From the NCBI GenBank assembly GCA_022605955.1, contig JAKCOZ010000329.1, forward strand, positions 1 to 64,000: a stretch of DNA of 64,000 bases, written 5' to 3'. The notes under the pieces were generated by a model, which saw only the letters and a program-made list of their open reading frames with translations, did not search any database and was not told the DNA's origin. The position numbers and the translations under genes are program-made. Source of the stretch: Rallus limicola. Its lineage: Eukaryota > Chordata > Aves > Gruiformes > Rallidae. Positions 20,255 to 64,000 of this stretch are shown one piece after another. Every line of letters starts with the position of its first letter. Position 1 is the first letter of the stretch.

Positions 20255-20275
20255 GTAGGAGGTCCAGGCATGTTC
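20255..20275 (+). repeat. 1-bp deletion, first copy (197-bp monomer)
   Basis: GGAGGTTCCAGG is read here as GGAGGTCCAGG, losing one T at about 20263-20264. The same lesion recurs exactly 1187 bp later, so it was copied by a tandem duplication and did not arise twice. It breaks the open frame on both strands. Confidence 0.92.
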
Positions 20276-21441: not shown

Positions 21442-21462
21442 GTAGGAGGTCCAGGCATGTTC
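21442..21462 (+). repeat. 1-bp deletion, second copy (197-bp monomer)
   Basis: This is the same loss of one T as near 20263, at about 21450-21451. The flanking monomers also match the earlier copy, including the rare pair TTTAATTTGG and GAACGGCAG upstream at about 21174 and 21214. It is inherited by duplication. Confidence 0.92.
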
Positions 21463-27620: not shown

Positions 27621-27650
27621 AAGGCTGAGAGCCAAAGTGACAGGGTCTGC

Positions 27651-38177: not shown

Positions 38178-41100
38178 ATGCCTTTCATGCCTAGCTTCTT
38201 TACTTTGGGAGTTATTGCTGGACGTTTAGCATGTTTTGAACTGCAGTCTGCTAGGGCCGAGAAAAGCACCGTAGGAGGTTCCAGGCATGTTCCCTCTTTC
38301 CAGGCAAAGGAAAAGGCTGAGAGCCAAAGTGACAGGGTCTGCTTGTGTGTCCTGTTAGGAGGTTTCAGACAAGCTATGCCTTTCAGTCCTAGCTTCTTTA
38401 CTTTGGGAGTTATTGCTGGACGTTTAGCATGTTTTGAACTGCAGTCTGCTAGGGCCGAGAAAAGCACCGTAGGAGGTTCCAGGCATGTTCCCTCTTTCCA
38501 GGCAAAGGAAAAGGCTGAGAGCCAAAGTGACAGGGTCTGCTTGTGTGTCCTGTTAGGAGGTTTCAGACAAGCTATGCCTTTCAGGCCTAGCTTCTTTACT
38601 TTGGGAGTTATTGCTGGACGTTTAGCATGTTTTGAACTGCAGTCTGCTAGGGCCGAGAAAAGCACCGTAGGAGGTTCCAGGCATGTTCCCTCTTTCCAGG
38701 CAAAGGAAAAGGCTGAGAGCCAAAGTGACAGGGTCTGCTTGTGTGTCCTGTTAGGAGGTTTCAGACAAGCTATGCCTTTCATGCCTAGCTTCTTTACTTT
38801 GGGAGTTATTGCTGGACGTTTAGCATGTTTTGAACTGCAGTCTGCTAGGGCCGAGAAAAGCACCGTAGGAGGTTCCAGGCATGTTCCCTCTTTCCAGGCA
38901 AAGGAAAAGGCTGAGAGCCAAAGTGACAGGGTCTGCTTGTGTGTCCTGTTAGGAGGTTTCAGACAAGCTATGCCTTTCAGTCCTAGCTTCTTTACTTTGG
39001 GAGTTATTGCTGGACGTTTAGCATGTTTTGAACTGCAGTCTGCTAGGGCCGAGAAAAGCACTGTAGGAGGTTCCAGGCATGTTCCCTCTTTCCAGGCAAA
39101 TGAAAAGGCTGAGAGCCAAAGTGACAGGGTCTGCTTGTGTGTCCTGTTAGGAGGTTTCAGACAAGCTATGCCTTTCAGTCCTAGCTTCTTTACTTTGGGA
39201 GTTATTGCTGGACGTTTAGCATGTTTTGAACAGCAGTCTGCTAGGGCCGAGAAAAGCACCGTAGGAGGTTCCAGGCATGTTCCCTCTTTCCAGGCAAAGG
39301 AAAAGGCTGAGAGCCAAAGTGACAGGGTCTGCTTGTGTGTCCTGTTAGGAGGTTTCAGACAAGCTATGCCTTTCAGTCCTAGCTTCTTTACTTTGGGAGT
39401 TATTGCTGGACGTTTAGCATGTTTTGAACTGCAGTCTGCTAGGGCCGAGAAAAGCACTGTAGGAGGTAGCAGGTATGTTCCCTCTTTCCAGGCAAAGGAA
39501 AAGGCTGAGAGCCAAAGTGACAGGGTCTGCTTGTGTGTCCTGTTAGGAGGTTTCAGACAAGCTATGCCTTTCAGTCTTAGCTTCTTTACTTTGGGAGTTA
39601 TTGCTGGACGTTTAGCATGTTTTGAACTGCAGTCTGCTAGGGCCGAGAAAAGCACCGTAGGAGGTTCCAGGCATGTTCCCTCTTTCCAGGCAAAGGAAAA
39701 GGCTGAGAGCCAAAGTGACAGGGTCTGCTTGTGTGTCCTGTTAGGAGGTTTCAGACAAGCTATGCCTTTCAGTCCTAGCTTCTTTACTTTGGGAGTTATT
39801 GCTGGACGTTTAGCATGTTTTGAACTGCAGTCTGCTAGGGCCGAGAAAAGCACCGTAGGAGGTTCCAGGCATGTTCCCTCTTTCCAGGCAAAGGAAAAGG
39901 CTGAGAGCCAAAGTGACAGGGTCTGCTTGTGTGTCCTGTTAGGAGGTTTCAGACAAGCTATGCCTTTCAGGCCTAGCTTCTTTACTTTGGGAGTTATTGC
40001 TGGACGTTTAGCATGTTTTGAACTGCAGTCTGCTAGGGCCGAGAAAAGCACCGTAGGAGGTTCCAGGCATGTTCCCTCTTTCCAGGCAAAGGAAAAGGCT
40101 GAGAGCCAAAGTGACAGGGTCTGCTTGTGTGTCCTGTTAGGAGGTTTCAGACAAGCTATGCCTTTCAGTCCTAGCTTCTTTACTTTGGGAGTTATTGCTG
40201 GACGTTTAGCATGTTTTGAACTGCAGTCTGCTAGGGCCGAGAAAAGCACCGTAGGAGGTTCCAGGCATGTTCCCTCTTTCCAGGCAAAGGAAAAGGCTGA
40301 GAGCCAAAGTGACAGGGTCTGCTTGTGTGTCCTGTTAGGAGGTTTCAGACAAGCTATGCCTTTCAGTCCTAGCTTCTTTACTTTGGGAGTTATTGCTGGA
40401 CGTTTAGCATGTTTTGAACTGCAGTCTGCTAGGGCCGAGAAAAGCACCGTAGGAGGTTCCAGGCATGTTCCCTCTTTCCAGGCAAAGGAAAAGGCTGAGA
40501 GCCAAAGTGACAGGGTCTGCTTGTGTGTCCTGTTAGGAGGTTTCAGACAAGCTATGCCTTTCAGTCCTAGCTTCTTTACTTTGGGAGTTATTGCTGGACG
40601 TTTAGCATGTTTTGAACTGCAGTCTGCTAGGGCCGAGAAAAGCACCGTAGGAGGTTCCAGGCATGTTCCCTCTTTCCATGCAAAGGAAAAGGCTGAGAGC
40701 CAAAGTGACAGGGTCTGCTTGTGTGTCCTGTTAGGAGGTTTCAGACAAGCTATGCCTTTCAGTCCTAGCTTCTTTACTTTGGGAGTTATTGCTGGACGTT
40801 TAGCATGTTTTGAACTGCAGTCTGCTAGGGCCGAGAAAAGCACCGTAGGAGGTTCCAGGCATGTTCCCTCTTTCCAGGCAAAGGAAAAGGCTGAGAGCCA
40901 AAGTGACAGGGTCTGCTTGTGTGTCCTGTTAGGAGGTTTCAGACAAGCTATGCCTTTCAGTCCTAGCTTCTTTACTTTGGGAGTTATTGCTGGACGTTTA
41001 GCATGTTTTGAACTGCAGTCTGCTAGGGCCGAGAAAAGCACCGTAGGAGGTTCCAGGCATGTTCCCTCTTTCCAGGCAAAGGAAAAGGCTGAGAGCCAAA

Positions 41101-42070
41101 GTGACAGGGTCTGCTTGTGTGTCCTGTTAGGAGGTTTCAGACAAGCTATGCCTTTCATGCCTAGCTTCTTTACTTTGGGAGTTATTGCTGGACGTTTAGC
41201 ATGTTTTGAACTGCAGTCTGCTAGGGCCGAGAAAAGCACCGTAGGAGGTTCCAGGCATGTTCCCTCTTTCCAGGCAAAGGAAAAGGCTGAGAGCCAAAGT
41301 GACAGGGTCTGCTTGTGTGTCCTGTTAGGAGGTTTCAGACAAGCTATGCCTTTCATGCCTAGCTTCTTTACTTTGGGAGTTATTGCTGGACGTTTAGCAT
41401 GTTTTGAACTGCAGTCTGCTAGGGCCGAGAAAAGCACCGTAGGAGGTTCCAGGCATGTTCCCTCTTTCCAGGCAAAGGAAAAGGCTGAGAGCCAAAGTGA
41501 CAGGGTCTGCTTGTGTGTCCTGTTAGGAGGTTTCAGACAAGCTATGCCTTTCATGCCTAGCTTCTTTACTTTGGGAGTTATTGCTGGACGTTTAGCATGT
41601 TTTGAACTGCAGTCTGCTAGGGCCGAGAAAAGCACTGTAGGAGGTAGCAGGTATGTTCCCTCTTTCCAGGCAAAGTAAAAGGCTGAGAGCCAAAGTGACA
41701 GGGTCTGCTTGTGTGTCCTGTTAGGAGGTTTCAGACAAGCTATGCCTTTCAGTCCTAGCTTCTTTACTTTGGGAGTTATTGCTGGACGTTTAGCATGTTT
41801 TGAACTGCAGTCTGCTAGGGCCGAGAAAAGCACTGTAGGAGGTTCCAGGTATGTTCCCTCTTTCCAGGCAAAGTAAAAGGCTGAGAGCCAAAGTGACAGG
41901 GTCTGCTTGTGTGTCCTGTTAGGAGGTTTCAGACAAGCTATGCCTTTCATGCCTAGCTTCTTTACTTTGGGAGTTATTGCTGGACGTTTAGCATGTTTTG
42001 AACTGCAGTCTGCTAGGGCCGAGAAAAGCACTGTAGGCGGTAGCAGGTATGTTCCCTCTTTCCAGGCAAA
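38178..42070 (+). repeat. Mid block M, copy 3 (within the large segmental copy)
   Basis: CAAATGAAAA (39097, exactly 28,906 bp after 10191), GAACAGCAG (about 39230) and CAGTCTTAGC (about 39575) show the relation to copies 1 and 2. Here the CAGTCTTAGC monomer has the standard GGACGTTTAG, not GGACTTTTAG. The TTTAATTTGG variant is missing at the expected place, although TTTCCATGCAAAGG remains (about 40675). Only two AAGTAA monomers follow (about 41674, 41872); the third carries GGCGGTAGC and an intact AAGGAA. Confidence 0.75.
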
Positions 42071-45000
42071 GGAAAAGGCTGAGAGCCAAAGTGACAGGGT
42101 CTGCTTGTGTGTCCTGTTAGGAGGTTTCAGACAAGCTATGCCTTTCATGCCTAGCTTCTTTACTTTGGGAGTTATTGCTGGACGTTTAGCATGTTTTGAA
42201 CTGCAGTCTGCTAGGGCCGAGAAAAGCACCGTAGGAGGTTCCAGGCATGTTCCCTCTTTCCAGGCAAAGGAAAAGGCTGAGAGCCAAAGTGACAGGGTCT
42301 GCTTGTGTGTCCTGTTAGGAGGTTTCAGACAAGCTATGCCTTTCATGCCTAGCTTCTTTACTTTGGGAGTTATTGCTGGACGTTTAGCATGTTTTGAACT
42401 GCAGTCTGCTAGGGCCGAGAAAAGCACCGTAGGAGGTTCCAGGCATGTTCCCTCTTTCCAGGCAAAGGAAAAGGCTGAGAGCCAAAGTGACAGGGTCTGC
42501 TTGTGTGTCCTGTTAGGAGGTTTCAGACAAGCTATGCCTTTCAGTCCTAGCTTCTTTACTTTGGGAGTTATTGCTGGACGTTTAGCATGTTTTGAACTGC
42601 AGTCTGCTAGGGCCGAGAAAAGCACCGTAGGAGGTTCCAGGCATGTTCCCTCTTTCCAGGCAAAGGAAAAGGCTGAGAGCCAAAGTGACAGGGTCTGCTT
42701 GTGTGTCCTGTTAGGAGGTTTCAGACAAGCTATGCCTTTCATGCCTAGCTTCTTTACTTTGGGAGTTATTGCTGGACGTTTAGCATGTTTTGAACTGCAG
42801 TCTGCTAGGGCCGAGAAAAGCACCGTAGGAGGTTCCAGGCATGTTCCCTCTTTCCAGGCAAAGGAAAAGGCTGAGAGCCAAAGTGACAGGGTCTGCTTGT
42901 GTGTCCTGGTAGGAGGTTTCAGACAAGCTATGCCTTTCAGTCCTAGCTTCTTTACTTTGGGAGTTATTGCTGGACGTTTAGCATGTTTTGAACTGCAGTC
43001 TGCTAGGGCCGAGAAAAGCACCGTAGGAGGTTCCAGGCATGTTCCCTCTTTCCAGGCAAAGGAAAAGGCTGAGAGCCAAAGTGACAGGGTCTGCTTGTGT
43101 GTCCTGTTAGGAGGTTTCAGACAAGCTATGCCTTTCAGTCCTAGCTTCTTTACTTTGGGAGTTATTGCTGGACGTTTAGCATGTTTTGAACTGCAGTCTG
43201 CTAGGGCCGAGAAAAGCACCGTAGGAGGTTCCAGGCATGTTCCCTCTTTCCAGGCAAAGGAAAAGGCTGAGAGCCAAAGTGACAGGGTCTGCTTGTGTGT
43301 CCTGTTAGGAGGTTTCAGACAAGCTATGCCTTTCATGCCTAGCTTCTTTAATTTGGGAGTTATTGCTGGACGTTTAGCATGTTTTGAACTGCAGTCTGCT
43401 AGGGCCGAGAAAAGCACCGTAGGAGGTTCCAGGCATGTTCCCTCTTTCCATGCAAAGGAAAAGGCTGAGAGCCAAAGTGACAGGGTCTGCTTGTGTGTCC
43501 TGTTAGGAGGTTTCAGACAAGCTATGCCTTTCAGTCCTAGCTTCTTTACTTTGGGAGTTATTGCTGGACGTTTAGCATGTTTTGAACTGCAGTCTGCTAG
43601 GGCCGAGAAAAGCACCGTAGGAGGTTCCAGGCATGTTCCCTCTTTCCAGGCAAAGGAAAAGGCTGAGAGCCAAAGTGACAGGGTCTGCTTGTGAGTTCTG
43701 TTAGGAGGTTTCAGACAAGCTATGCCTTTCAGTCCTAGCTTCTTTACTTTGGGAGTTATTGCTGGACGTTTAGCATGTTTTGAACTGCAGTCTGCTAGGG
43801 CCGAGAAAAGCACCGTAGGAGGTTCCAGGCATGTTCCCTCTTTCCAGGCAAAGGAAAAGGCTGAGAGCCAAAGTGACAGGGTCTGCTTGTGTGTCCTGTT
43901 AGGAGGTTTCAGACAAGCTATGCCTTTCAGTCCTAGCTTCTTTACTTTGGGAGTTATTGCTGGACGTTTAGCATGTTTTGAACTGCAGTCTGCTAGGGCC
44001 GAGAAAAGCACCGTAGGAGGTTCCAGGCATGTTCCCTCTTTCCAGGCAAAGGAAAAGGCTGAGAGCCAAAGTGACAGGGTCTGCTTGTGTGTCCTGTTAG
44101 GAGGTTTCAGACAAGCTATGCCTTTCATGCCTAGCTTCTTTACTTTGGGAGTTATTGCTGGACGTTTAGCATGTTTTGAACTGCAGTCTGCTAGGGCCGA
44201 GAAAAGCACTGTAGGAGGTAGCAGGTATGTTCCCTCTTTCCAGGCAAAGTAAAAGGCTGAGAGCCAAAGTGACAGGGTCTGCTTGTGTGTCCTGTTAGGA
44301 GGTTTCAGACAAGCTATGCCTTTCAGTCCTAGCTTCTTTACTTTGGGAGTTATTGCTGGACGTTTAGCATGTTTTGAACTGCAGTTAGCTAGGGCCGAGA
44401 AAAGCACCGTAGGAGGTTCCAGGCATGTTCCCTCTTTCCAGGCAAAGGAAAAGGCTGAGAGCCAAAGTGACAGGGTCTGCTTGTGTGTCCTGTTAGGAGG
44501 TTTCAGACAAGCTATGCCTTTCAGTCCTAGCTTCTTTACTTTGGGAGTTATTGCTGGACGTTTAGCATGTTTTGAACTGCAGTCTGCTAGGGCCGAGAAA
44601 AGCACCGTAGGAGGTTCCAGGCATGTTCCCTCTTTCCAGGCAAAGGAAAAGGCTGAGAGCCAAAGTGACAGGGTCTGCTTGTGTGTCCTGTTAGGAGGTT
44701 TCAGACAAGCTATGCCTTTCATGCCTAGCTTCTTTAATTTGGGAGTTATTGCTGGACGTTTAGCATGTTTTGAACTGCAGTCTGCTAGGGCCGAGAAAAG
44801 CACCGTAGGAGGTTCCAGGCATGTTCCCTCTTTCCATGCAAAGGAAAAGGCTGAGAGCCAAAGTGACAGGGTCTGCTTGTGTGTCCTGTTAGGAGGTTTC
44901 AGACAAGCTATGCCTTTCAGTCCTAGCTTCTTTACTTTGGGAGTTATTGCTGGACGTTTAGCATGTTTTGAACTGCAGTCTGCTAGGGCCGAGAAAAGCA

Positions 45001-45910
45001 CCGTAGGAGGTTCCAGGCATGTTCCCTCTTTCCAGGCAAAGGAAAAGGCTGAGAGCCAAAGTGACAGGGTCTGCTTGTGAGTCCTGTTAGGAGGTTTCAG
45101 ACAAGCTATGCCTTTCAGTCCTAGCTTCTTTACTTTGGGAGTTATTGCTGGACGTTTAGCATGTTTTGAACTGCAGTCTGCTAGGGCCGAGAAAAGCACC
45201 GTAGGAGGTTCCAGGCATGTTCCCTCTTTCCAGGCAAAGGAAAAGGCTGAGAGCCAAAGTGACAGGGTCTGCTTGTGTGTCCTGTTAGGAGGTTTCAGAC
45301 AAGCTATGCCTTTCAGTCCTAGCTTCTTTACTTTGGGAGTTATTGCTGGACGTTTAGCATGTTTTGAACTGCAGTCTGCTAGGGCCGAGAAAAGCACCGT
45401 AGGAGGTTCCAGGCATGTTCCCTCTTTCCAGGCAAAGGAAAAGGCTGAGAGCCAAAGTGACAGGGTCTGCTTGTGTGTCCTGTTAGGAGGTTTCAGACAA
45501 GCTATGCCTTTCATGCCTAGCTTCTTTACTTTGGGAGTTATTGCTGGACGTTTAGCATGTTTTGAACAGCAGTCTGCTAGGGCCGAGAAAAGCACCGTAG
45601 GAGGTTCCAGGCATGTTCCCTCTTTCCAGGCAAAGGAAAAGGCTGAGAGCCAAAGTGACAGGGTCTGCTTGTGTGTCCTGTTAGGAGGTTTCAGACAAGC
45701 TATGCCTTTCAGGCCTAGCTTCTTTACTTTGGGAGTTATTGCTGGACGTTTAGCATGTTTTGAACTGCAGTCTGCTAGGGCCGAGAAAAGCACTGTAGGA
45801 GGTAGCAGGTATGTTCCCTCTTTCCAGGCAAAGTAAAAGGCTGAGAGCCAAAGTGACAGGGTCTGCTTGTGTGTCCTGTTAGGAGGTTTCAGACAAGCTA
45901 TGCCTTTCAG
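41907..45910 (+). repeat. Segment related to 18.5-21.9 kb
   Basis: Rare variants CCTGGTAGG (42909), TTTAATTTGG (about 43350 and 44736), TTGTGAGTCC or TTGTGAGTTC (about 43692, 45078) and CAGTTAGCTAGG (about 44385 and 45968) recall 18545-22010. The two TTTAATTTGG copies here are 1386 bp apart, whereas they are 1187 bp apart near 20-21 kb. The T deletion is absent here, so it probably arose in the 20-kb copy after the segmental duplication, or this region descends from an undeleted relative. Confidence 0.7.
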
Positions 45911-48900
45911 TCCTAGCTTCTTTACTTTGGGAGTTATTGCTGGACGTTTAGCATGTTTTGAACTGCAGTTAGCTAGGGCCGAGAAAAGCACCGTAGGAGG
46001 TTCCAGGCATGTTCCCTCTTTCCAGGCAAAGGAAAAGGCTGAGAGCCAAAGTGACAGGGTCTGCTTGTGTGTCCTGTTAGGAGGTTTCAGACAAGCTATG
46101 CCTTTCAGTCCTAGCTTCTTTACTTTGGGAGTTATTGCTGGACGTTTAGCATGTTTTGAACTGCAGTCTGCTAGGGCCGAGAAAAGCACCGTAGGAGGTT
46201 CCAGGCATGTTCCCTCTTTCCAGGCAAAGGAAAGGGCTGAGAGCCAAAGTGACAGGGTCTGCTTGTGTGTCCTGTTAGGAGGTTTCAGACAAGCTATGCC
46301 TTTCAGTCCTAGCTTCTTTACATTGGGAGTTATTGCTGGACGTTTAGCATGTTTTGAACTGCAGTCTGCTAGGGCCGAGAAAAGCACCGTAGGAGGTTCC
46401 AGGCATGTTCCCTCTTTCCAGGCAAAGGAAAAGGCTGAGAGCCAAAGTGACAGGGTCTGCTTGTGTGTCCTGTTAGGAGGTTTCAGACAAGCTATGCCTT
46501 TCATGCCTAGCTTCTTTACTTTGGGAGTTATTGCTGGACGTTTAGCATGTTTTGAACTGCAGTCTGCTAGGGCCGAGAAAAGCACCGTAGGAGGTTCCAG
46601 GCATGTTCCCTCTTTCCAGGCAAAGGAAAAGGCTGAGAGCCAAAGTGACAGGGTCTGCTTGTGTGTCCTGTTAGGAGGTTTCAGACAAGCTATGCCTTTC
46701 AGTCCTAGCTTCTTTACTTTGGGAGTTATTGCTGGACGTTTAGCATGTTTTGAACTGCAGTCTGCTAGGGCCGAGAAAAGCACCGTAGGAGGTTCCAGGC
46801 ATGTTCCCTCTTTCCAGGCAAAGGAAAAGGCTGAGAGCCAAAGTGACAGGGTCTGCTTGTGTGTCCTGTTAGGAGGTTTCAGACAAGCTATGCCTTTCAT
46901 GCCTAGCTTCTTTACTTTGGGAGTTATTGCTGGACGTTTAGCATGTTTTGAACTGCAGTCTGCTAGGGCCGAGAAAAGCACTGTAGGAGGTAGCAGGTAT
47001 GTTCCCTCTTTCCAGGCAAAGGAAAAGGCTGAGAGCCAAAGTGACAGGGTCTGCTTGTGTGTCCTGTTAGGAGGTTTCAGACAAGCTATGCCTTTCAGTC
47101 CTAGCTTCTTTACTTTGGGAGTTATTGCTGGACGTTTAGCATGTTTTGAACTGCAGTCTGCTAGGGCCGAGAAAAGCACTGTAGGAGGTTCCAGGTATGT
47201 TCCCTCTTTCCAGGCAAAGGAAAAGGCTGAGAGCCAAAGTGACAGGGTCTGCTTGTGTGTCCTGTTAGGAGGTTTCAGACAAGCTATGTCTTTCAGTCCT
47301 AGCTTCTTTACTTTGGGAGTTATTGCTGGACGTTTAGCATGTTTTGAACTGCAGTCTGCTAGGGCCGAGAAAAGCACCGTAGGAGGTTCCAGGCATGTTC
47401 CCTCTTTCCAGGCAAAGGAAAAGGCTGAGAGCCAAAGTGACAGGGTCTGCTTGTGTGTCCTGGTAGGAGGTTTCAGACAAGCTATGCCTTTCAGTCCTAG
47501 CTTCTTTACTTTGGGAGTTATTGCTGGACGTTTAGCATGTTTTGAACTGCAGTCTGCTAGGGCCGAGAAAAGCACCGTAGGAGGTTCCAGGCATGTTCCC
47601 TCTTTCCAGGCAAAGGAAAAGGCTGAGAGCCAAAGTGACAGGGTCTGCTTGTGTGTCCTGTTAGGAGGTTTCAGACAAGCTATGCCTTTCAGTCCTAGCT
47701 TCTTTACTTTGGGAGTTATTGCTGGACGTTTAGCATGTTTTGAACTGCAGTCTGCTAGGGCCGAGAAAAGCACCGTAGGAGGTTCCAGGCATGTTCCCTC
47801 TTTCCAGGCAAAGGAAAAGGCTGAGAGCCAAAGTGACAGGGTCTGCTTTTGTGTCCTGTTAGGAGGTTTCAGACAAGCTATGCCTTTCAGTCCTAGCTTC
47901 TTTACTTTGGGAGTTATTGCTGGACGTTTAGCATGTTTTGAACTGCAGTCTGCTAGGGCCGAGAAAAGCACTGTAGGAGGTTCCAGGTATGTTCCCTCTT
48001 TCCAGGCAAAGGAAAAGGCTGAGAGCCAAAGTGACAGGGTCTGCTTGTGTGTCCTGTTAGGAGGTTTCAGACAAGCTATGCCTTTCATGCCTAGCTTCTT
48101 TACTTTGGGAGTTATTGCTGGACGTTTAGCATGTTTTGAACTGCAGTCTGCTAGGGCCGAGAAAAGCACCGTAGGAGGTTCCAGGCATGTTCCCTCTTTC
48201 CAGGCAAAGGAAAAGGCTGAGAGCCAAAGTGACAGGGTCTGCTTGTGTGTCCTGGTAGGAGGTTTCAGACAAGCTATGCCTTTCAGTCCTAGCTTCTTTA
48301 CTTTGGGAGTTATTGCTGGACGTTTAGCATGTTTTGAACTGCAGTCTGCTAGGGCCGAGAAAAGCACCGTAGGAGGTTCCAGGCATGTTCCCTCTTTCCA
48401 GGCAAAGGAAAAGGCTGAGAGCCAAAGTGACAGGGTCTGCTTGTGTGTCCTGTTAGGAGGTTTCAGACAAGCTATGCCTTTCATGCCTAGCTTCTTTACT
48501 TTGGGAGTTATTGCTGGACGTTTAGCATGTTTTGAACTGCAGTCTGCTAGGGCCGAGAAAAGCACTGTAGGAGGTTCCAGGCATGTTCCCTCTTTCCAGG
48601 CAAAGGAAAAGGCTGAGAGCCAAAGTGACAGGGTCTGCTTGTGTGTCCTGTTAGGAGGTTTCAGACAAGCTATGCCTTTCAGTCCTAGCTTCTTTACTTT
48701 GGGAGTTATTGCTGGACGTTTAGCATGTTTTGAACTGCAGTCTGCTAGGGCCGAGAAAAGCACTGTAGGAGGTAGCAGGTATGTTCCTTCTTTCCAGGCA
48801 AAGGAAAAGGCTGAGAGCCAAAGTGACAGGGTCTGCTTGTGTGTCCTGTTAGGAGGTTTCAGACAAGCTATGCCTTTCAGTCCTAGCTTCTTTACTTTGG

Positions 48901-49085
48901 GAGTTATTGCTGGACGTTTAGCATGTTTTGAACTGCAGTCTGCTAGGGCCTAGAAAAGCACCGTAGGAGGTTCCAGGCATGTTCCCTCTTTCCAGGCAAA
49001 GGAAAAGGCTGAGAGCCAAAGTGACAGGGTCTGCTTGTGTGTCCTGTTAGGAGGTTTCAGACAAGCTATGCCTTTCAGTCCTAGC
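45911..49085 (+). repeat. Junction-proximal segment of the left arm
   Basis: About 16 monomers with a more mixed variant set than the blocks to the left. CACTGTA with AGGTATG but an intact AAGGAA occurs several times (about 46980, 47180, 47970, 48763). CCTGGTAGG occurs twice more (about 47461, 48253). Private changes include TTTACATTGGG (46318), AAAGGGCTG (about 46231), TGCTTTTGTG (about 47845) and GCCTAGAAAAG (about 48948). The copy at 48781 reads ATGTTCCTTC, a base otherwise characteristic of the right arm. Confidence 0.75.
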
Positions 49086-49095
49086 GTATGAATGG
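49071..49095. other. Array inversion junction (tail-to-tail fold-back)
   Basis: The forward array ends in CCTTTCAGTC (49071-49080) and CTAGC (49081-49085). It is followed directly by GTATGAATGG, a diverged form of the reverse-oriented GCATGAAAGG. The two arms therefore pair as an inverted repeat with a loop of about 5 bases. The inner 10 bp match at 7 of 10 positions, and pairing improves further out (ACAAGCTATG against AATAGCTTGT matches at 9 of 10). Both breakpoints lie at the same place in the monomer, within a few bases of CTAG, so no spacer is present. The junction may be a real inversion or an assembly join; the sequence alone cannot decide. Confidence 0.95.
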
Positions 49096-49283
49096 AATAG
49101 CTTGTCTGAAACCTTCTAACAGGACACACAAGCAGACCCTGGCACTTTGGCTCTCAGCCTTTTCCTTTGCCTGGAAAGAGGGAACATGCCTGGAACCTCC
49201 TACAATGCTTTTCTCGGCCCTAGCAGACTGCTGTTCAAAACATGCTAAACGTCCAGCAATAACTCCCAAAGTAAAGAAGCTAG
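49086..49283 (-). repeat. Diverged edge monomer at the inversion
   Basis: This is the first reverse monomer. It is full length (198 bp to the same phase in the next copy at 49284) but carries an unusual load of changes for its position. These are GTATGAATGGAA for GCATGAAAGGCA, CCTTCTAAC for CCTCCTAAC, CTGGCACTT for CTGTCACTT, ACAATGC for ACGGTGC, and GCTGTTC for GCAGTTC. Several are not seen elsewhere in the window. Higher divergence is expected for monomers at an array edge or boundary, where unequal exchange homogenises less well (established for satellites). Confidence 0.85.
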
Positions 49284-49350
49284 GCATGAAAGGCATAGCT
49301 TGTCTGAAACCTCCTAACAGGACACACAAGCAGACCCTGTCACTTTGGCT

Positions 49351-49370
49351 CTCAGCCTTTTTTCTTTGCC
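49351..49370 (-). repeat. 1-bp insertion (199-bp monomer)
   Basis: The usual GCCTTTTCCTTTGCC reads here GCC, six T, then CTTTGCC, which is one base longer. It is the only length change found in the right arm and it shifts the frame of the reverse open frame at this point. It lies in the second monomer from the inversion, again in the less homogenised junction zone. Confidence 0.85.
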
Positions 49371-49547
49371 TGGAAAGAAGGAACATACCTGCTACCTCCT
49401 ACAGTGCTTTCCTCGGTCCTAGCAGACTGCAGTTCAAAACATGCTAAACGTCCAGCAATAACTCCCAAAGTAAAGAAGCTAGGACTGAAAGGCATAGCTT
49501 GTCTGAAACCTCCTAACAGGACACACAAGCAGACCCTGTCACTTTGG

Positions 49548-52500
49548 CTCTCAGCCTTTTCCTTTGCCTGGAAAGAGGGAACATGCCTGGAACCTCCTAC
49601 GGTGCTTTTCTCGGCCCTAGCAGACTGCAGTTCAAAACATGCTAAACGTCCAGCAATAACTCCCAAAGTAAAGAAGCTAGGACTGAAAGGCATAGCTTGT
49701 CTGAAACCTCCTAACAGGACACACAAGCAGACCCTGTCACTTTGGCTCTCAGCCTTTTCCTTTGCCTGGAAAGAGGGAACATGCCTGGAACCTCCTACGG
49801 TGCTTTTCTCGGCCCTAGCAGACTGCAGTTCAAAACATGCTAAACGTCCAGCAATAACTCCCAAAGTACAGATGCTAGGACTGAAAGGCATAGCTTGTCT
49901 GAAACCTCCTAACAGGACACACAAGCAGACCCTGTCACTTTGGCTCTCAGCCTTTTCCTTTGCCTGGAAAGAGGGAACATGCCTGGAACCTCCTACGGTG
50001 CTTTTCTCGGCCCTAGCAGACTGCAGTTCAAAACATGCTAAACGTCCAGCAATAACTCCCAAAGTAAAGAAGCTAGGCATGAAAGGCATAGCTTGTCTGA
50101 AACCTCCTAACAGGACACACAAGCAGACCCTGTCACTTTGGCTCTCAGCCTTTTCCTTTGCCTGGAAAGAGGGAACATGCCTGGAACCTCCTACGGTGCT
50201 TTTCTCGGCCCTAGCAGACTGCAGTTCAAAACATGCTAAACGTCCAGCAATAACTCCCAAAGTAAAGAAGCTAGGACTGAAAGGCATAGCTTGTCTGAAA
50301 CCTCCTAACAGGACACACAAGCAGACCCTGTCACTTTGGCTCTCAGCCTTTTCCTTTGCCTGGAAAGAGGGATCATACCTGCTACCTCCTACAATGCTTT
50401 TCTCGGCCCTAGCAGACTGCATTTCAAAACATGCTAAACGTCCAGCAATAACTCCCAAAGTAAAGAAGCTAGGCATGAAAGGCATAGCTTGTCTGAAACC
50501 TCCTAACAGGACACACAAGCAGACCCTGTCACTTTGGCTCTCAGCCTTTTCCTTTGCCTGGAAAGAAGGAACATACCTGCTACCTCCTACAGTGCTTTCC
50601 TCGGTCCTAGCAGACTGCAGTTCAAAAGATGCTAAACGTCCAGCAATAACTCCCAAAGTAAAGAAGCTAGGCCTGAAAGGCATAGCTTGTCTGAAACCTC
50701 CTAACAGGACACACAAGCAGACCCTGTCACTTTGGCTCTCAGCCTTTTCCTTTGCCTGGAAAGAGGGAACATGCCTGGAACCTCCTACGGTGCTTTTCTC
50801 GGCCCTAGCAGACTGCAGTTCAAAACATGCTAAACGTCCAGCAATAACTCCCAAAGTAAAGAAGCTAGGACTGAAAGGCATAGCTTGTCTGAAACCTCCT
50901 AACAGGACACACAAGCAGACCCTGTCACTTTGGCTCTCAGCTTTTTCCTTTGCCTGGAAAGAGGGAACATGCCTGGAACCTCCTACGGTGCTTTTCTCGG
51001 CCCTAGCAGACTGCAGTTCAAAACATGCTAAACGTCCAGCAATAACTCCCAAAGTAAAGAAGCTAGGACTGAAAGGCATAGCGTGTCTGAAACCTCCTAA
51101 CAGGACACACAAGCAGACCCTGTCACTTTGGCTCTCAGCCTTTTCCTTTGCCTGGAAAGAAGGAACATACCTGCTACCTCCTACAGTGCTTTCCTCGGTC
51201 CTAGCAGACTGCAGTTCAAAACATGCTAAACGTCCAGCAATAACTCCCAAAGTAAAGAAGCTAGGCCTGAAAGACATAGCTTGTCTGAAACCTCCTAACA
51301 GGACACACAAGCAGACCCTGTCACTTTGACTCTCAGCCTTTTCCTTTGCCTGGAAAGAGGGAACATGCCTGGAACCTCCTACGGTGCTTTTCTCGGCCCT
51401 AGCAGACTGCAGTTCAAAACATGCTAAACGTCCAGCAATAACTCCCAAAGTAAAGAAGCTAGGACTGAAAGGCATAGCTTGTCTGAAACCTCCTAACAGG
51501 ACACACAAGCAGACCCTGTCACTTTGGCTCTCAGCCTTTTCCTTTGCCTGGAAAGAGGGAACATGCCTGGAACCTCCTACGGTGCTTTTCTCGGCCCTAG
51601 CAGACTGCAGTTCAAAACATGCTAAACGTCCAGCAATAACTCCCAAAGTACAGATGCTAGGACTGAAAGGCATAGCTTGTCTGAAACCTCCTAACAGGAC
51701 ACACAAGCAGACCCTGTCACTTTGGCTCTCAGCCTTTTCCTTTGCCTGGAAAGAGGGAACATGCCTGGAACCTCCTACGGTGCTTTTCTCGGCCCTAGCA
51801 GACTGCAGTTCAAAACATGCTAAACGTCCAGCAATAACTCCCAAAGTAAAGAAGCTAGGCATGAAAGGCATAGCTTGTCTGAAACCTCCTAACAGGACAC
51901 ACAAGCAGACCCTGTCACTTTGGCTCTCAGCCTTTTCCTTTGCCTGGAAAGAGGGAACATGCCTGGAACCTCCTACGGTGCTTTTCTCGGCCCTAGCAGA
52001 CTGCAGTTCAAAACATGCTAAACGTCCAGCAATAACTCCCAAAGTAAAGAAGCTAGGACTGAAAGGCATAGCTTGTCTGAAACCTCCTAACAGGACACAC
52101 AAGCAGACCCTGTCACTTTGGCTCTCAGCCTTTTCCTTTGCCTGGAAAGAGGGATCATACCTGCTACCTCCTACAATGCTTTTCTCGGCCCTAGCAGACT
52201 GCATTTCAAAACATGCTAAACGTCCAGCAATAACTCCCAAAGTAAAGAAGCTAGGCATGAAAGGCATAGCTTGTCTGAAACCTCCTAACAGGACACACAA
52301 GCAGACCCTGTCACTTTGGCTCTCAGCCTTTTCCTTTGCCTGGAAAGAAGGAACATACCTGCTACCTCCTACAGTGCTTTCCTCGGTCCTAGCAGACTGC
52401 AGTTCAAAAGATGCTAAACGTCCAGCAATAACTCCCAAAGTAAAGAAGCTAGGCCTGAAAGGCATAGCTTGTCTGAAACCTCCTAACAGGACACACAAGC

Positions 52501-53111
52501 AGACCCTGTCACTTTGGCTCTCAGCCTTTTCCTTTGCCTGGAAAGAGGGAACATGCCTGGAACCTCCTACGGTGCTTTTCTCGGCCCTAGCAGACTGCAG
52601 TTCAAAACATGCTAAACGTCCAGCAATAACTCCCAAAGTAAAGAAGCTAGGACTGAAAGGCATAGCTTGTCTGAAACCTCCTAACAGGACACACAAGCAG
52701 ACCCTGTCACTTTGGCTCTCAGCTTTTTCCTTTGCCTGGAAAGAGGGAACATGCCTGGAACCTCCTACGGTGCTTTTCTCGGCCCTAGCAGACTGCAGTT
52801 CAAAACATGCTAAACGTCCAGCAATAACTCCCAAAGTAAAGAATGTAGGCATGAAAGGCATAGCGTGTCTGAAACCTCCTAACAGGACACACAAGCAGAC
52901 CCTGTCACTTTGGCTCTCAGCCTTTTCCTTTGCCTGGAAAGAAGGAACATACCTGCTACCTCCTACAGTGCTTTCCTCGGTCCTAGCAGACTGCAGTTCA
53001 AAACATGCTAAACGTCCAGCAATAACTCCCAAAGTAAAGAAGCTAGGCCTGAAAGACATAGCTTGTCTGAAACCTCCTAACAGGACACACAAGCAGACCC
53101 TGTCACTTTGA
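49548..53111 (-). repeat. 9-monomer higher-order repeat, 1782-bp period, two copies
   Basis: Markers are 1782 bp apart: GTACAGATGC (49869 and 51651 at its CAGATG), GACTGCATTTC (about 50420 and 52202), CAAAAGATGC (about 50624 and 52406), AGCTTTTTCC (about 50940 and 52722) and CTTTGACTC (about 51328 and 53110). Copy limits are set at the CTTTGACTC change and are approximate. One monomer differs between copies: GAAGCTAGGACTG near 51060 against GAATGTAGGCATG near 52842. CAGATG does not recur 1782 bp further on, so there is no third copy. Confidence 0.85.
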
Positions 53112-55140
53112 CTCTCAGCCTTTTCCTTTGCCTGGAAAGAGGGAACATGCCTGGAACCTCCTACGGTGCTTTTCTCGGCCCTAGCAGACTGCAGTTCAAA
53201 ACATGCTAAACGTCCAGCAATAACTCCCAAAGTAAAGAAGCTAGGACTGAAAGGCATAGCTTGTCTGAAACCTCCTAACAGGACACACAAGCAGACCCTG
53301 TCACTTTGGCTCTCAGCCTTTTCCTTTGCCTGGAAAGAGGGAACATGCCTGGAACCTCCTACGGTGCTTTTCTCGGCCCTAGCAGACTGCAGTTCAAAAC
53401 ATGCTAAACGTCCAGCAATAACTCCCAAAGTAAAGAAGCTAGGACTGAAAGGCATAGCTTGTCTGAAACCTCCTAACAGGACACACAAGCAGACCCTGTC
53501 ACTTTGGCTCTCAGCCTTTTCCTTTGCCTGGAAAGAGGGAACATGCCTGGAACCTCCTACGGTGCTTTTCTCGGCCCTAGCAGACTGCAGTTCAAAACAT
53601 GCTAAACGTCCAGCAATAACTCCCAAAGTAAAGAAGCTAGGCATGAAAGGCATAGCTTGTCTGAAACCTCCTAACAGGACACACAAGCAGACCCTGTCAC
53701 TTTGGCTCTCAGCCTTTTCCTTTGCCTGGAAAGAGGGAACATGCCTGGAACCTCCTACGGTGCTTTTCTCGGCCCTAGCAGACTGCAGTTCAAAACATGC
53801 TAAACGTCCAGCAATAACTCCCAAAGTAAAGAAGCTAGGACTGAAAGGCATAGCTTGTCTGAAACCTCCTAACAGGACACACAAGCAGACCCTGTCACTT
53901 TGGCTCTCAGCCTTTTCCTTTGCCTGGAAAGAGGGAACATGCCTGGAACCTCCTACGGTGCTTTTCTCGGCCATAGCAGACTGCAGTTCAAAACATGCTA
54001 AACGTCCAGCAATAACTCCCAAAGTAAAGAAGCTAGGACTGAAAGGCATAGCTTGTCTGAAACCTCATAACAGGACACACAAGCAGACCCTGTCACTTTG
54101 GCTCTCAGCCTTTTCCTTTGCCTGGAAAGAGGGAACATGCCTGGAACCTCCTACGGTGCTTTTCTCGGCCCTAGCAGACTGCAGTTCAAAACATGCTAAA
54201 CGTCCAGCAATAACTCCCAAAGTAAAGAAGCTAGGCATGAAAGGCATAGCTTGTCTGAAACCTCCTAACAGGACACACAAGCAGACCCTGTCACTTTGGC
54301 TCTCAGCCTTTTCCTTTGCCTGGAAAGAGGGAACATGCCTGGAACCTCCTACGGTGCTTTTCTCGGCCCTAGCAGACTGCAGTTCAAAACATGCTAAACG
54401 TCCAGCAATAACTCCCAAAGTAAAGAAGCTAGGACTGAAAGGCATAGCTTGTCTGAAACCTCCTAACAGGACACACAAGCAGACCCTGTCACTTTGGCTC
54501 TCAGCCTTTTCCTTTGCCTGGAAAGAGGGAACATGCCTGGAACCTCCTACGGTGCTTTTCTCGGCCCTAGCAGACTGCAGTTCAAAACATGCTAAACGTC
54601 CAGCAATAACTCCCAAAGTAAAGAAGCTAGGACTGAAAGGCATAGCTTGTCTGAAACCTCCTAACAGGACACACAAGCAGACCCTGTCACTTTGGCTCTC
54701 AGCCTTTTCCTTTGCCTGGAAAGAGGGAACATGCCTGGAACCTCCTACGGTGCTTTTCTCGGCCCTAGCAGACTGCAGTTCAAAACATGCTAAACGTCCA
54801 GCAATAACTCCCAAAGTAAAGAAGCTAGGACTGAAAGGCATAGCTTGTCTGAAACCTCCTAACAGGACACACAAGCAGACCCTGTCACTTTGGCTCTCAG
54901 CCTTTTCCTTTGCCTGGAAAGAGGGAACATGCCTGGAACCTCCTACGGTGCTTTTCTCGGCCCTAGCAGACTGCAGTTCAAAACATGCTAAACGTCCAGC
55001 AATAACTCCCAAAGTAAAGAAGCTAGGACTGAAAGGCATAGCTTGTCTGAAACCTCCTAACAGGACACACAAGCAGACCCTGTCACTTTGGCTCTCAGCC
55101 TTTTCCTTTGCCTGGAAAGAGGGAACATGCCTGGAACCTC

Positions 55141-58100
55141 CTACGGTGCTTTTCTCGGCCCTAGCAGACTGCAGTTCAAAACATGCTAAAAGTCCAGCAA
55201 TAACTCCCAAAGTAAAGAAGCTAGGACTGAAAGGCATAGCTTGTCTGAAACCTCCTAACAGGACACACAAGCAGACCCTGTCACTTTGGCTCTCAGCCTT
55301 TTCCTTTGCCTGGAAAGAAGGAACATACCTGCTACCTCCTACAGTGCTTTCCTCGGTCCTAGCAGACTGCAGTTCAAAACATGCTAAACGTCCAGCAATA
55401 ACTCCCAAAGTTAAGAAGCTAGGCCTGAAAGGCATAGCTTGTCTGAAACCTCCTAACAGGACACACAAGCAGACCCTGTCACTTTGGCTCTCAGCCTTTT
55501 CCTTTGCCTGGAAAGAAGGAACATACCTGCTACCTCCTACGGTGCTTTCCTCGGTCCTAGCAGACTGCAGTTCAAAACATGCTAAACGTCCAGCAATAAC
55601 TCCCAAAGTAAAGAAGCTAGGCCTGAAAGACATAGCTTGTCTGAAACCTCCTAACAGGACACACAAGCAGACCCTGTCACTTTGGCTCTCAGCCTTTTCC
55701 TTTGCCTGGAAAGAGGGAACATGCCTGGAACCTCCTACGGTGCTTTTCTCGGCCCTAGCAGACTGCAGTTCAAAACATGCTAAACGTCCAGCAATAACTC
55801 CCAAAGTAAAGAAGCTAGGCCTGAAAGACATAGCTTGTCTGAAACCTCCTAACAGGACACACAAGCAGACCCTGTCACTTTGGCTCTCAGCCTTTTCCTT
55901 TGCCTGGAAAGAGGGAACATGCCTGGAACCTCCTACGGTGCTTTTCTCGGCCCTAGCAGACTGCAGTTCAAAACATGCTAAACGTCCAGCAATAACTCCC
56001 AAAGTAAAGAAGCTAGGACTGAAAGGCATAGCTTGTCTGAAACCTCCTAACAGGACACACAAGCAGACCCTGTCACTTTGGCTCTCAGCCTTTTCCTTTG
56101 CCTGGAAAGAGGGAACATGCCTGGAACCTCCTACGGTGCTTTTCTCGGCCCTAGCAGACTGCTGTTCAAAACATGCTAAACGTCCAGCAATAACTCCCAA
56201 AGTAAAGAAGCTAGGACTGAAAGGCATAGCTTGTCTGAAACCTCCTAACAGGACACACAAGCAGACCCTGTCACTTTGGCTCTCAGCCTTTTCCTTTGCC
56301 TGGAAAGAAGGAACATGCCTGGAACCTCCTACGGTGCTTTCCTCGGCCCTAGCAGACTGCAGTTCAAAACATGCTAAACGTCCAGCAATAACTCCCAAAG
56401 TAAAGAAGCTAGGCCTGAAAGGCATAGCTTGTCTGAAACCTCCTAACAGGACACACAAGCAGACCCTGTCACTTTGGCTCTCAGCCTTTTCCTTTGCCTG
56501 GAAAGAGGGAACAGTCCTGGAACCTCCTACGGTGCTTTTCTCGGCCCTAGCAGACTGCAGTTCAAAACATGCTAAACGTCCAGCAATAACTCCCAAAGTA
56601 AAGAAGCTAGGACTGAAAGGCATAGCTTGTCTGAAACCTCCTAACAGGACACACAAGCAGACCCTGTCACTTTGGCTCTCAGCCTTTTCCTTTGCCTGGA
56701 AAGAAGGAACATACCTGCTACCTCCTACCGTGCTTTTCTCGGCCCTAGCAGACTGCAGTTCAAAACATGCTAAACGTCCAGCAATAACTCCCAAAGTAAA
56801 GAAGCTAGGCATGAAAGGCATAGCTTGTCTGAAACCTCCTAACAGGACACACAAGCAGGCCCTGTCACTTTGGCTCTCAGCCTTTTCCTTTGCCTGGAAA
56901 GAGGGAACATGCCTGGAACCTCCTACGGTGCTTTTCTCGGCACTAGCAGACTGCTGTTCAAAACATGCTAAACGTCCAGCAATAACTCCCAAAGTAAAGA
57001 AGCTAGGCATGAAAGGCATAGCTTGTCTGAAACTTCCTAACAGGACACACAAGCAGACCCTGTCACTTTGGCTCTCAGCCTTTTCCTTTGCCTGGAAAGA
57101 AGGAACATACCTGCTACCTCCTACAGTGCTTTCCTCGGTCCTAGCAGACTGCAGTTCAAAACATGCTAAACGTCCAGCAATAACTCCCAAAGTAAAGAAG
57201 CTAGGCATGAAAGGCATAGCTTGTCTGAAACCTCCTAACAGGACACACAAGCAGACCCTGTCACTTTGGCTCTCAGCCTTTTCCTTTGCCTGGAAAGAGG
57301 GAACATGCCTGGAACCTCCTACGGTGCTTTTCTCGGCCCTAGCAGACTGCAGTTCAAAACATGCTAAACGTCCAGCAATAACTCCCAAAGTAAAGAAGCT
57401 AGGACTGAAAGGCATAGCTTGTCTGAAACCTCCTAACAGGACACACAAGCAGACCCTGTCACTTTGGCTCTCAGCCTTTTCCTTTGCCTGGAAAGAGGGA
57501 ACATGCCTGGAACCTCCTACGGTGCTTTTCTCGGCCCTAGCAGACTGCAGTTCAAAACATGCTAAAAGTCCAGCAATAACTCCCAAAGTAAAGAAGCTAG
57601 GCATGAAAGGCATAGCTTGTCTGAAACCTCCTAACAGGACACACAAGCAGACCCTGTCACTTTGGCTCTCAGCTTTTTCCTTTGCCTGGAAAGAAGGAAC
57701 ATACCTGCTACCTCCTACAGTGCTTTCCTCGGTCCTAGCAGACTGCAGTTCAAAACATGCTAAACGTCCAGCAATAACTCCCAAAGTTAAGAAGCTAGGC
57801 CTGAAAGACATAGCTTGTCTGAAACCTCCTAACAGGACACACAAGCAGACCCTGTCACTTTGGCTCTCAGCCTTTTCCTTTGCCTGGAAAGAAGGAACAT
57901 ACCTGCTACCTCCTACGGTGCTTTCCTCGGTCCTAGCAGACTGCAGTTCAAAACATGCTAAACGTCCAGCAATAACTCCCAAAGTAAAGAAGCTAGGCCT
58001 GAAAGACATAGCTTGTCTGAAACCTCCTAACAGGACACACAAGCAGACCCTGTCACTTTGGCTCTCAGCCTTTTCCTTTGCCTGGAAAGAGGGAACATGC

Positions 58101-58200
58101 CTGGAACCTCCTACGGTGCTTTTCTCGGCCCTAGCAGACTGCAGTTCAAAACATGCTAAACGTCCAGCAATAACTCCCAAAGTAAAGAAGCTAGGACTGA
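55141..58200 (-). repeat. 12-monomer spaced duplication, 2376-bp period
   Basis: CTAAAAGTCC (about 55188 and 57564), AAGTTAAGAAG (55411 and 57787), ACGGTGCTTTCCTC (55541 and 57917) and GCCTGAAAGACATAG (55621 and 57997) are each 2376 bp (12 x 198) apart. The shared stretch is certain over about 0.7 kb at each end; the middle was not compared monomer by monomer. Confidence 0.75.
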
Positions 58201-60899
58201 AAGGCATAGCTTGTCTGAAACCTCCTAACAGGACACACAAGCAGACCCTGTCACTTTGGCTCTCAGCCTTTTCCTTTGCCTGGAAAGAGGGAACATGCCT
58301 GGAACCTCCTACGGTGCTTTTCTTGGCCCTAGCAGACTGCAGTTCAAAACATGCTAAACGTCCAGCAATAACTCCCAAAGTAAAGAAGCTAGGACTGAAA
58401 GGCATAGCTTGTCTGAAACCTCCTAACAGGACACACAAGCAGACCCTGTCACTTTGGCTCTCAGCCTTTTCCTTTGCCTGGAAAGAGGGAACATGCCTGG
58501 AACCTCCTACGGTGCTTTTCTCGGCCCTAGCAGACTGCAGTTCAAAACATGCTAAACGTCCAGCAATAACTCCCAAAGTAAAGAAGCTAGGACTGAAAGG
58601 CATAGCTTGTCTGAAACCTCCTAACAGGACACACAAGCAGACCCTGTCACTTTGGCTCTCAGCCTTTTCCTTTGCCTGGAAAGAGGGAACATGCCTGGAA
58701 CCTCCTACGGTGCTTTTCTCGGCCCTAGCAGACTGCAGTTCAAAACATGCTAAACGTCCAGCAATAACTCCCAAAGTAAAGAAGCTAGGCATGAAAGGCA
58801 TAGCTTGTCTGAAACCTCCTAACAGGACACACAAGCAGACCCTGTCACTTTGGCTCTCAGCCTTTTCCTTTGCCTGGAAAGAGGGAACATGCCTGGAACC
58901 TCCTACGGTGCTTTTCTCGGCCCTAGCAGACTGCAGTTCAAAACATGCTAAACGTCCAGCAATAACTCCCAAAGTAAAGAAGCTAGGACTGAAAGGCATA
59001 GCTTGTCTGAAACCTCCTAACAGGACACACAAGCAGACCCGGTCACTTTGGCTCTCAGCCTTTTCCTTTGCCTGGAAAGAAGGAACATGCCTGGAACCTC
59101 CTACGGTGCTTTTCTCGGCCCTAGCAGACTGCAGTTCAAAACATGCTAAACGTCCAGCAATAACTCCCAAAGTAAAGAAGCTAGGACTGAAAGGCATAGC
59201 TTGTCTGAAACCTCCTAACAGGACACACAAGCAGACCCTGTCACTTTGGCTCTCAGCCTTTTCCTTTGCCTGGAAAGAGGGAACATGCCTGGAACCTCCT
59301 ACGGTGCTTTTCTCGGCCCTAGCAGACTGCAGTTCAAAACATGCTAAACGTCCAGCAATAACTCCCAAAGTAAAGAAGCTAGGACTGAAAGGCATAGCTT
59401 GTCTGAAACCTCCTAACAGGACACACAAGCAGACCCTGTCACTTTGGCTCTCAGCCTTTTCCTTTGCCTGGAAAGAGGGAACATGCCTGGAACCTCCTAC
59501 GGTGCTTTTCTCGGCCCTAGCAGACTGCAGTTCAAAACATGCTAAACGTCCAGCAATAACTCCCAAAGTAAAGAAGCTAGGCATGAAAGGCATAGCTTGT
59601 CTGAAACCTCCTAACAGGACACACAAGCAGACCCTGTCACTTTGGCTCTCAGCCTTTTCCTTTGCCTGGAAAGAGGGAACATGCCTGGAACCTCCTACGG
59701 TGCTTTTCTCGGCCCTAGCAGACTGCTGTTCAAAACATGCTAAACGTCCAGCAATAACTCCCAAAGTAAAGAAGCTAGGCCTGAAAGGCATAGCTTGTCT
59801 GAAACCTCCTAACAGGACACACAAGCAGACCCTGTCACTTTGGCTCTCAGCCTTTTCCTTTGCCTGGAAAGAAGGAACATACCTGCTACCTCCTACGGTG
59901 CTTTTCTCGGCCCTAGCAGACTGCAGTTCAAAACATGCTAAACGTCCAGCAATAACTCCCAAAGTAAAGAAGCTAGGCCTGAAAGGCATAGCTTGTCTGA
60001 AACCTCCTAACAGGACACACAAGCAGACCCTGTCACTTTGGCTCTCAGCCTTTTCCTTTGCCTGGAAAGAGGGAACATGCCTGGAACCTCCTACGGTGCT
60101 TTTCTCGGCCCTAGCAGACTGCAGTTCAAAACATGCTAAACGTCCAGCAATAACTCCCAAAGTAAAGAAGCTAGGACTGAAAGACATAGCTTGTCTGAAA
60201 CCTCCTAACAGGACACACAAGCAGACCCTGTCACTTTGGCTCTCAGCCTTTTCCTTTGCCTGGAAAGAGGGAACATGCCTGGAACCTCCTACGGTGCTTT
60301 TCTCGGCCCTAGCAGACTGCTGTTCAAAACATGCTAAACGTCCAGCAATAACTCCCAAAGTAAAGAAGCTAGGCATGAAAGGCATAGCTTGTCTGAAACC
60401 TCCTAACAGGACACACAAGCAGACCCTGTCACTTTGGCTCTCAGCCTTTTCCTTTGCCTGGAAAGAAGGAACATGCCTGGAACCTCCTACGGTGCTTTTC
60501 TCGGCCCTAGCAGACTGCAGTTCAAAACATGCTAAACGTCCAGCAATAACTCCCAAAGTAAAGAAGCTAGGACTGAAAGGCATAGCTTGTCTGAAACCTC
60601 CTAACAGGACACACAAGCAGACCCTGTCACTTTGGCTCTCAGCCTTTTCCTTTGCCTGGAAAGAGGGAACATGCCTGGAACCTCCTACGGTGCTTTTCTC
60701 GGCCCTAGCAGACTGCAGTTCAAAACATGCTAAACGTCCAGCAATAACTCCCAAAGTAAAGAAGCTAGGCATGAAAGGCATAGCTTGTCTGAAACCTCCT
60801 AACAGGACACACAAGCAGACCCTGTCACTTTGGCTCTCAGCCTTTTCCTTTGCCTGGAAAGAGGGAACATGCCTGGAACCTCCTACGGTGCTTTTCTCG

Positions 60900-63800: not shown

Positions 63801-64000
63801 TGGCTCTCAGCCTTTTCCTTTGCCTGGAAAGAAGGAACATACCTGCTACCTCCTACAGTGCTTTCCTCGGTCCTATCAGACTGCAGTTCAAAACATGCTA
63901 AACGTCCAGCAATAACTCCCAAAGTAAAGAAGCTAGGCCTGAAAGGCATAGCTTGTCTGAAACCTCCTAACAGGACACACAAGCAGACCCTGTCACTTTG
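60900..64000 (-). repeat. 11-monomer higher-order repeat, 2178-bp period
   Basis: GCTGTTCAAA (60913 and 63091), GCTTGCCTGAAACTTCC (AACTTCC at 60991 and 63169) and TCCTATCAGAC (61696 and 63874) are each exactly 2178 bp (11 x 198) apart. A related monomer with GCTGTTC and AACTTCC also lies 3960 bp (20 x 198) before the first, at about 56953-57031. The second copy is cut by the window end. Confidence 0.8.

What the first reader, a model, noticed from the sequence alone, without database searches (positions are those of the whole stretch)
49071..49283. Tail-to-tail orientation switch of the satellite with a 5-base loop
A forward array and a reverse array of the same monomer meet with no spacer, and both breakpoints lie at the same place in the monomer (CTAG). 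This makes a fold-back able to form a cruciform and a natural substrate for palindrome-type rearrangement. The arms are not mirror copies: rare variants and higher-order units differ. A single fold-back of one molecule therefore does not explain it. A real inversion, followed by separate homogenisation, fits better.
Basis: partly seen in the sequence, partly recalled or inferred. Interest (0 to 1): 0.75.

Follow-up and report, generated by a model that had tools for sequence, protein, structure and literature searches.

The report
Inverted junction inside satellite array
A long run of a 198-base repeat flips its direction once, joining two arrays that had drifted apart; this is a known, ordinary kind of rearrangement in repetitive DNA, and it still needs reads across the join to prove it is real.

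Summary
The 64 kb window is one 198-bp satellite: 248 forward units (1-49085, one cut by the window edge) meet 75 reverse units (49086-64000) with no spacer, at the window's only orientation switch. The forward array stops at monomer position 198 and the reverse one starts at 193. The "5-base loop" is nominal: nearby mismatches make the folded loop 11 nt, closing a 191-nt, 96% inverted repeat. The arms are not mirror copies. They share no monomer order beyond shuffles, and variants 61A/67G/99T mark 14-21 of 75 reverse monomers against 0-1 of 247 forward ones. The reverse arm is nearly twice as diverse. A recent fold-back of the neighbouring array is therefore rejected; a breakpoint joining two separately homogenised blocks fits best. 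Two post hoc clues hint at events at the centre: extra private changes in the first reverse monomer, and the only forward 99T lying second from the junction. Misassembly cannot be excluded: no genome is held, and no tool gives reads. Comparable switches are published in mouse, human and pea satellites. Ordinary; low interest.

The parts
1..49085 (+). forward satellite array: 245 monomers of 198 bp, two of 197 bp and one 181-bp partial at the window edge
49086..64000 (-). reverse satellite array of the same monomer: 75 monomers (73 of 198 bp, one of 199, the junction one of 193), plus a 69-bp remnant at the window edge
49081..49085 (.). CTAGC, last five bases of the forward array (unit positions 194-198), nominal 5-base loop; palindrome centre at 49083
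49078..49088 (.). 11-nt spacer between the two arms of the inverted repeat
   Evidence: arms; folded loop of the same length
48887..49077 (+). left arm of the 191-nt inverted repeat (96% complementary)
49089..49279 (-). right arm of the 191-nt inverted repeat
49086..49278 (-). R0, junction monomer of the reverse array, with 3 private substitutions, two of them (49093, 49096) within 11 bp of the junction
48690..48887 (+). F1, second forward monomer from the junction; the only one of 247 forward monomers with the reverse-array variant 99T
49279..49477 (-). R1, mirror partner of F1; carries 61A, 67G and 99T

Best explanation
It is a breakpoint of an inversion inside a large head-to-tail satellite, presumably of a eukaryote, which placed a separately homogenised block of the same 198-bp satellite in reverse orientation against another block. 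Most likely course: breakage and rejoining, or a replication template switch, between two blocks of the satellite at almost the same monomer phase (shown: phases within 5 bp, no spacer; inferred: the process). Each block had, or later acquired, its own variants on a shared older haplotype (shown: 85A/86G/91T in both arms, with 99T almost only in reverse and 115T only in forward). After that, unequal exchange, which needs direct repeats in register, works within each arm but not across the switch, so the switch also marks a boundary of homogenisation (inferred). The structure suggests no further role.
For: Single switch at 49085/49086. Arms belong to different sublineages: 61A 14/75, 67G 15/75, 99T 21/75 in reverse against 0, 0 and 1 of 247 in forward; 115T 19/247, 153A 15/247, 108T 10/247 in forward and 0/75 in reverse. 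85A+86G+91T occurs in 20/75 and 20/247 monomers; 99T is on it in 18 of 20 reverse and 1 of 20 forward, 115T in 14 of 20 forward. Forward against reverse monomer order scores 6.4 (same direction) and 5.0 (opposite), within 20 shuffles each (maxima 7.4 and 7.7), while each arm alone has strong duplications (86 against a shuffle maximum of 14; 23 against 7.8). The reverse arm is more diverse than any of 173 forward blocks of 75 monomers (5.33 against 2.49-3.18). By eye the two ends share only CTAG, so there is no long overlap that an assembler could have used.
Against: No read support or second breakpoint is available, and no genome is held. The near-equal phase of the two breakpoints (5 bp, about 5.6% by chance) is more natural for a fold-back than for two random breaks. 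In mirror register the first two and five forward monomers match R0-R1 and R0-R4 better than nearly every other forward stretch (rank 1 of 246 and 2 of 243), and 20 monomers are borderline (14 of 228; random pairings as good in 6%); this leans to a fold-back or to exchange across the centre. It is not borne out by 10, 40 or 70 monomers (60/238, 125/208, 31/178; random pairings as good in 25%, 25% and 22%), nor by sliding along the reverse arm (73/74, 51/71, 54/66, 50/56, 28/36, 4/6 for 2, 5, 10, 20, 40, 70 monomers).
Confidence: 0.6

Rival explanations
1. Assembly or read artefact: a chimeric read or misjoin links two unrelated pieces of the satellite.
For: Satellites are the hardest regions to assemble (general knowledge); no genome is held and no tool gives reads. 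The reverse arm belongs to another sublineage, as two unrelated pieces would. R0 has a cluster of odd bases at the join, which could be poor consensus.
Against: A self-fold-back read (missed hairpin adaptor) would give identical arms; these differ at diagnostic sites and in order. An overlap-based misjoin needs a long shared stretch, and by eye the two ends share only CTAG. Matching of the phases within 5 bp would be luck (about 5.6%).
Confidence: 0.22
2. Old fold-back (palindromic) duplication: the array copied itself back by template switching at CTAG, and the arms later diverged and were homogenised apart.
For: Phases equal within 5 bp; CTAG is self-complementary, though it is at two of the 9 palindromic tetramer sites of the unit. 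F0-F1 against R0-R1 in mirror register is the best of 246 forward positions, and the first five rank 2 of 243. The sole forward 99T is in F1, whose mirror partner R1 has 99T.
Against: F0 and R0 share no variant; F1 shares R1's five variants at 75-99 but lacks R1's six others. No clear mirror signal at 10, 40 or 70 monomers, borderline at 20; no shared monomer order. 21 of 75 reverse monomers (28%) carry 99T, so the R1 match is weak.
Confidence: 0.15
3. Two satellite blocks meeting through another event, such as a translocation, whole-arm exchange or insertion of a satellite circle, rather than an inversion.
For: Different sublineages and different diversity of the two arms.
Against: Nothing specific; the same majority consensus in both arms only says they are one family.
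Confidence: 0.03

Closest known systems
Directional switches in mouse minor and major satellites (PMC10880262, passages seen)
   Same: change of orientation inside satellite arrays (1.7% and 1.9% of MiSats and MaSats, in the authors' words), which the authors say suggests structural rearrangements such as inversion
   Different: other satellite sequence; junction bases were not in the two passages I saw
Inversion in the live alpha-satellite array of human centromere 1 (PMC9549924, passages seen)
   Same: orientation switch within a satellite array; [quoted passage not shown]
   Different: 171-bp alpha satellite (length recalled); here neither the organism nor any centromere role is known
FabTR-10 arrays of pea centromere 6 (PMC10027222, passages seen)
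   Same: inversion of part of one array (a2), and adjacent arrays a7/a8 explained by duplication and inversion; homogenisation mainly within arrays
   Different: a7/a8 stay highly similar; here the arms have separate sublineages
Template-switch palindromes (ODIRA; PMC10766186, passages seen)
   Same: inverted junction with a short spacer
   Different: there, in yeast, junctions map to pre-existing 5-6 bp inverted repeats 40-80 bp apart and the arms are copies of one segment; here the register gap is 5 nt and the arms are different sublineages

Membership tests
Inversion breakpoint within a satellite array | same monomer in opposite orientation on the two sides of one point | tested here: met
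Inversion breakpoint within a satellite array | second, reciprocal breakpoint elsewhere in the array | not testable with these tools
   array runs off both window ends; no genome held
Inversion breakpoint within a satellite array | present in independent reads | not testable with these tools
   no tool gives reads
Fold-back / palindromic duplication | breakpoints at the same monomer phase, short loop | tested here: met
   5-bp register offset, 11-nt folded loop
Fold-back / palindromic duplication | arms are mirror copies in monomer order and variants | tested here: not met
   only the first 2-5 monomers show a mirror preference among forward shifts, borderline at 20
ODIRA junction | junction at a pre-existing short inverted repeat separated by 40-80 nt (yeast; definition) | tested here: not met
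   register gap is 5 nt

The most novel reading that the evidence does not exclude
The switch is a long-lived quasi-palindrome (at least 14.9 kb per arm in the window) that blocks homogenisation between its arms while allowing short gene-conversion tracts between mirror partners right at the centre. It would be a natural gauge of the reach of unequal exchange and of conversion in a satellite.
Probability: 0.15. Interest if true: 0.45.

Novelty: new member of a known kind. Interest (0 to 1): 0.17.

Why it matters
If real, the switch separates two sublineages of one satellite to within about two monomers, so it is a small natural example of an orientation change acting as a boundary of homogenisation. 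It is also a caution: arms that differ rule out a simple fold-back read but do not by themselves prove the junction.

Tried and rejected
Identification of the satellite or species failed. No match in phage records (megablast of 48800-49400), in IMG/VR viral contigs to an exact 28-mer, in prokaryote genome contigs to an exact 22-mer, in Rfam for 48001-50400, or in the paper library to six 18-20-base stretches. Searches for a 198-bp satellite by name listed papers on plants, Drosophila and a frog; I saw listings only and claim no relation. Passages of a lemur centromere paper (PMC13228423; 12 of 28 places shown), a mouse T2T paper (PMC12597820) and an ape genome paper (PMC12058530) gave nothing that I use. 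Two listings on inverted satellite arrays led to the papers cited.

Recent fold-back of one molecule: rejected (with the limits told above). A fold-back at the 6-bp inverted repeat AAGCTA / TAGCTT, 13 nt apart, which the consensus unit carries around this very place (read by eye): its product would lack unit positions 176-198 on the reverse side, whereas the reverse arm starts at 193. A gradient of reverse-type variants along the forward arm: blocks at the junction ranked 1-2 of 208-246, but the trend along the arm is nil with or without F0-F1 (Spearman -0.008 and 0.001; mean score of the 20 monomers after F1 -1.20, 40 -1.38, 60 -1.37, rest -1.53), so only F1 is told. The mirror ranks for small blocks were spoilt by empty means and were redone; at 20, 30, 50 and 70 monomers one search put the mirror register 16th, 7th, 18th and 10th of 31. 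A 9-monomer lag in the reverse arm as a general period was not significant (81 of 200 shuffles reach it), though two neighbouring 9-monomer blocks are near-duplicates.

Protein coding by the very long open frames: rejected. A CENP-B box core was sought in the consensus unit and not found (motif recalled).

Rows dropped before counts: the 181-bp partial forward monomer and a 69-bp reverse remnant at the window edges, so n = 247 and 75.

Full report
What is there. The window is a single 198-bp satellite, GC about 0.49, in two arrays: forward 1-49085 and reverse 49089-64000 by Tandem Repeats Finder. Cutting it monomer by monomer from the switch gives 248 forward units (247 full, one partial at the window edge) and 75 reverse units, the first of 193 bp. 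The majority consensus of the two arrays is identical (232 and 63 monomers used). Of 55,356 consensus 20-mers found, those before the switch are forward and those after it reverse; there is one switch. No genome is held for the window, and the searches made, one megablast and two exact patterns, found the repeat in none of three collections, nor did six stretches occur in the paper library. A eukaryote is inferred from the nature of the array alone.

The junction. The forward array runs to unit position 198 and the reverse array starts at 193, so the breakpoints agree within 5 bp. The centre of symmetry is 49083. Nominally the loop is CTAGC, but mismatches at 49079/49087, 49078/49088, 49073/49093 and 49070/49096 leave an inverted repeat of 191-nt arms, 96% complementary, with 11 nt between. 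The single strand folds with an 11-nt loop at -65.6 kcal/mol, z -15.7. Because the monomers are so alike, a switch in register gives such a hairpin anyway; the hairpin follows from the switch and is not separate evidence. A cruciform in living cells is inference.

The arms are different sublineages. Over 247 forward and 75 reverse monomers, 44 and 51 variants were seen, 12 of them shared. 61A, 67G and 99T are in 14, 15 and 21 of 75 reverse monomers and in 0, 0 and 1 of 247 forward ones; 115T, 153A and 108T are in 19, 15 and 10 of 247 and in 0 of 75. Much of both sets sits on a shared haplotype (85A/86G/91T, 20 monomers in each arm): 99T is on it in 18 of 20 reverse and 1 of 20 forward copies, 115T in 14 of 20 forward copies. 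So the sublineages most simply split after that haplotype arose. Monomer order is not shared: local alignment of forward against reverse scores 6.4 (same direction, shuffle maximum 7.4) and 5.0 (opposite direction, shuffle maximum 7.7), 20 shuffles each, while within-arm duplications score 86 and 23 against shuffle maxima of 14 and 7.8. The reverse arm is the more diverse: mean pairwise difference 5.33 (5.08 without R0), against 2.49-3.18 for the 173 forward blocks of the same size.

Signs at the centre. R0 has three private substitutions (137C, 183T, 186A), besides five private gap positions at the junction end of its alignment, against 0.22 private variants per other reverse monomer; Poisson P for three about 0.0014 at the reverse rate. 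I looked there because it is the junction, so this is post hoc, and two of the three lie so close to the join that error-prone joining or poor consensus would do as well. The only forward monomer with 99T is F1, second from the junction; one chosen monomer lying that close has a chance of 2 in 247 (my arithmetic), again post hoc. Its mirror partner R1 also has 99T, as do 21 of 75 reverse monomers. Mirror agreement of the first two and five monomers ranks 1 of 246 and 2 of 243 among forward shifts, and of the first 20 ranks 14 of 228; but 10, 40 and 70 monomers rank 60/238, 125/208 and 31/178, random pairings of the same monomers are as good in 51%, 21%, 25%, 6%, 25% and 22% (2, 5, 10, 20, 40, 70 monomers), and among reverse shifts the mirror register ranks poorly throughout. 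This is a hint of conversion across the centre or of an old fold-back, not a demonstration.

Reading. A recent fold-back of the adjacent array is rejected by the differences between the arms, and so is the usual fold-back read artefact. A breakpoint joining two separately homogenised blocks is the best reading (0.6). Misassembly (0.22) can be settled only with reads. An old fold-back (0.15) keeps some weight because of the matched phase.

Comparison. Directional switches are described at 1.7% and 1.9% of mouse MiSats and MaSats (PMC10880262, passages); [quoted passage not shown] and in pea FabTR-10 arrays (PMC10027222, passages). Template-switch palindromes of the ODIRA kind use short inverted repeats 40-80 bp apart in yeast (PMC10766186, passages), which this junction does not match. 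The finding is a new member of a known kind, of low interest unless reads confirm it and the conversion hint holds.

Noticed in passing
window 21422-48763 (-), 1-20310 (-), 53166-63998 (+): Very long open frames (up to 9,113 codons), because 198 is a multiple of 3 and the consensus unit has one stop-free frame on each strand. Variants show no sign of coding: of 76 distinct substitutions, synonymous 17 and 19 in the two frames against 17.7 and 19.4 expected, stops 5 and 3 against 3.1 and 3.5. A trap for gene predictors.
   Followed up: yes
window about 28690-39980 and about 1170-11070: Large-scale duplication within the forward array: monomers F46-F102 match F192-F241 in order with some monomer gains and losses (score 86 against a maximum of 14 in 20 shuffles), about 28 kb apart.
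   Followed up: partly
window 49676-51457 and 51458-53239: Two neighbouring 9-monomer blocks of the reverse array (R3-R11, R12-R20) are near-duplicates, 8 of 9 monomers identical in type.
   Followed up: partly
whole window, monomer variants: Variants are rich in transversions (36 of 60 single substitutions) and in linked changes of two neighbouring bases (8 linked pairs against 1.9 expected; maximum 8 in 2,000 simulations), for example GT to TG at 191-192 and TC to AG at 85-86. One of the eight (74T with the commoner 75T) may be nested rather than one event. Cause unknown.
   Followed up: partly
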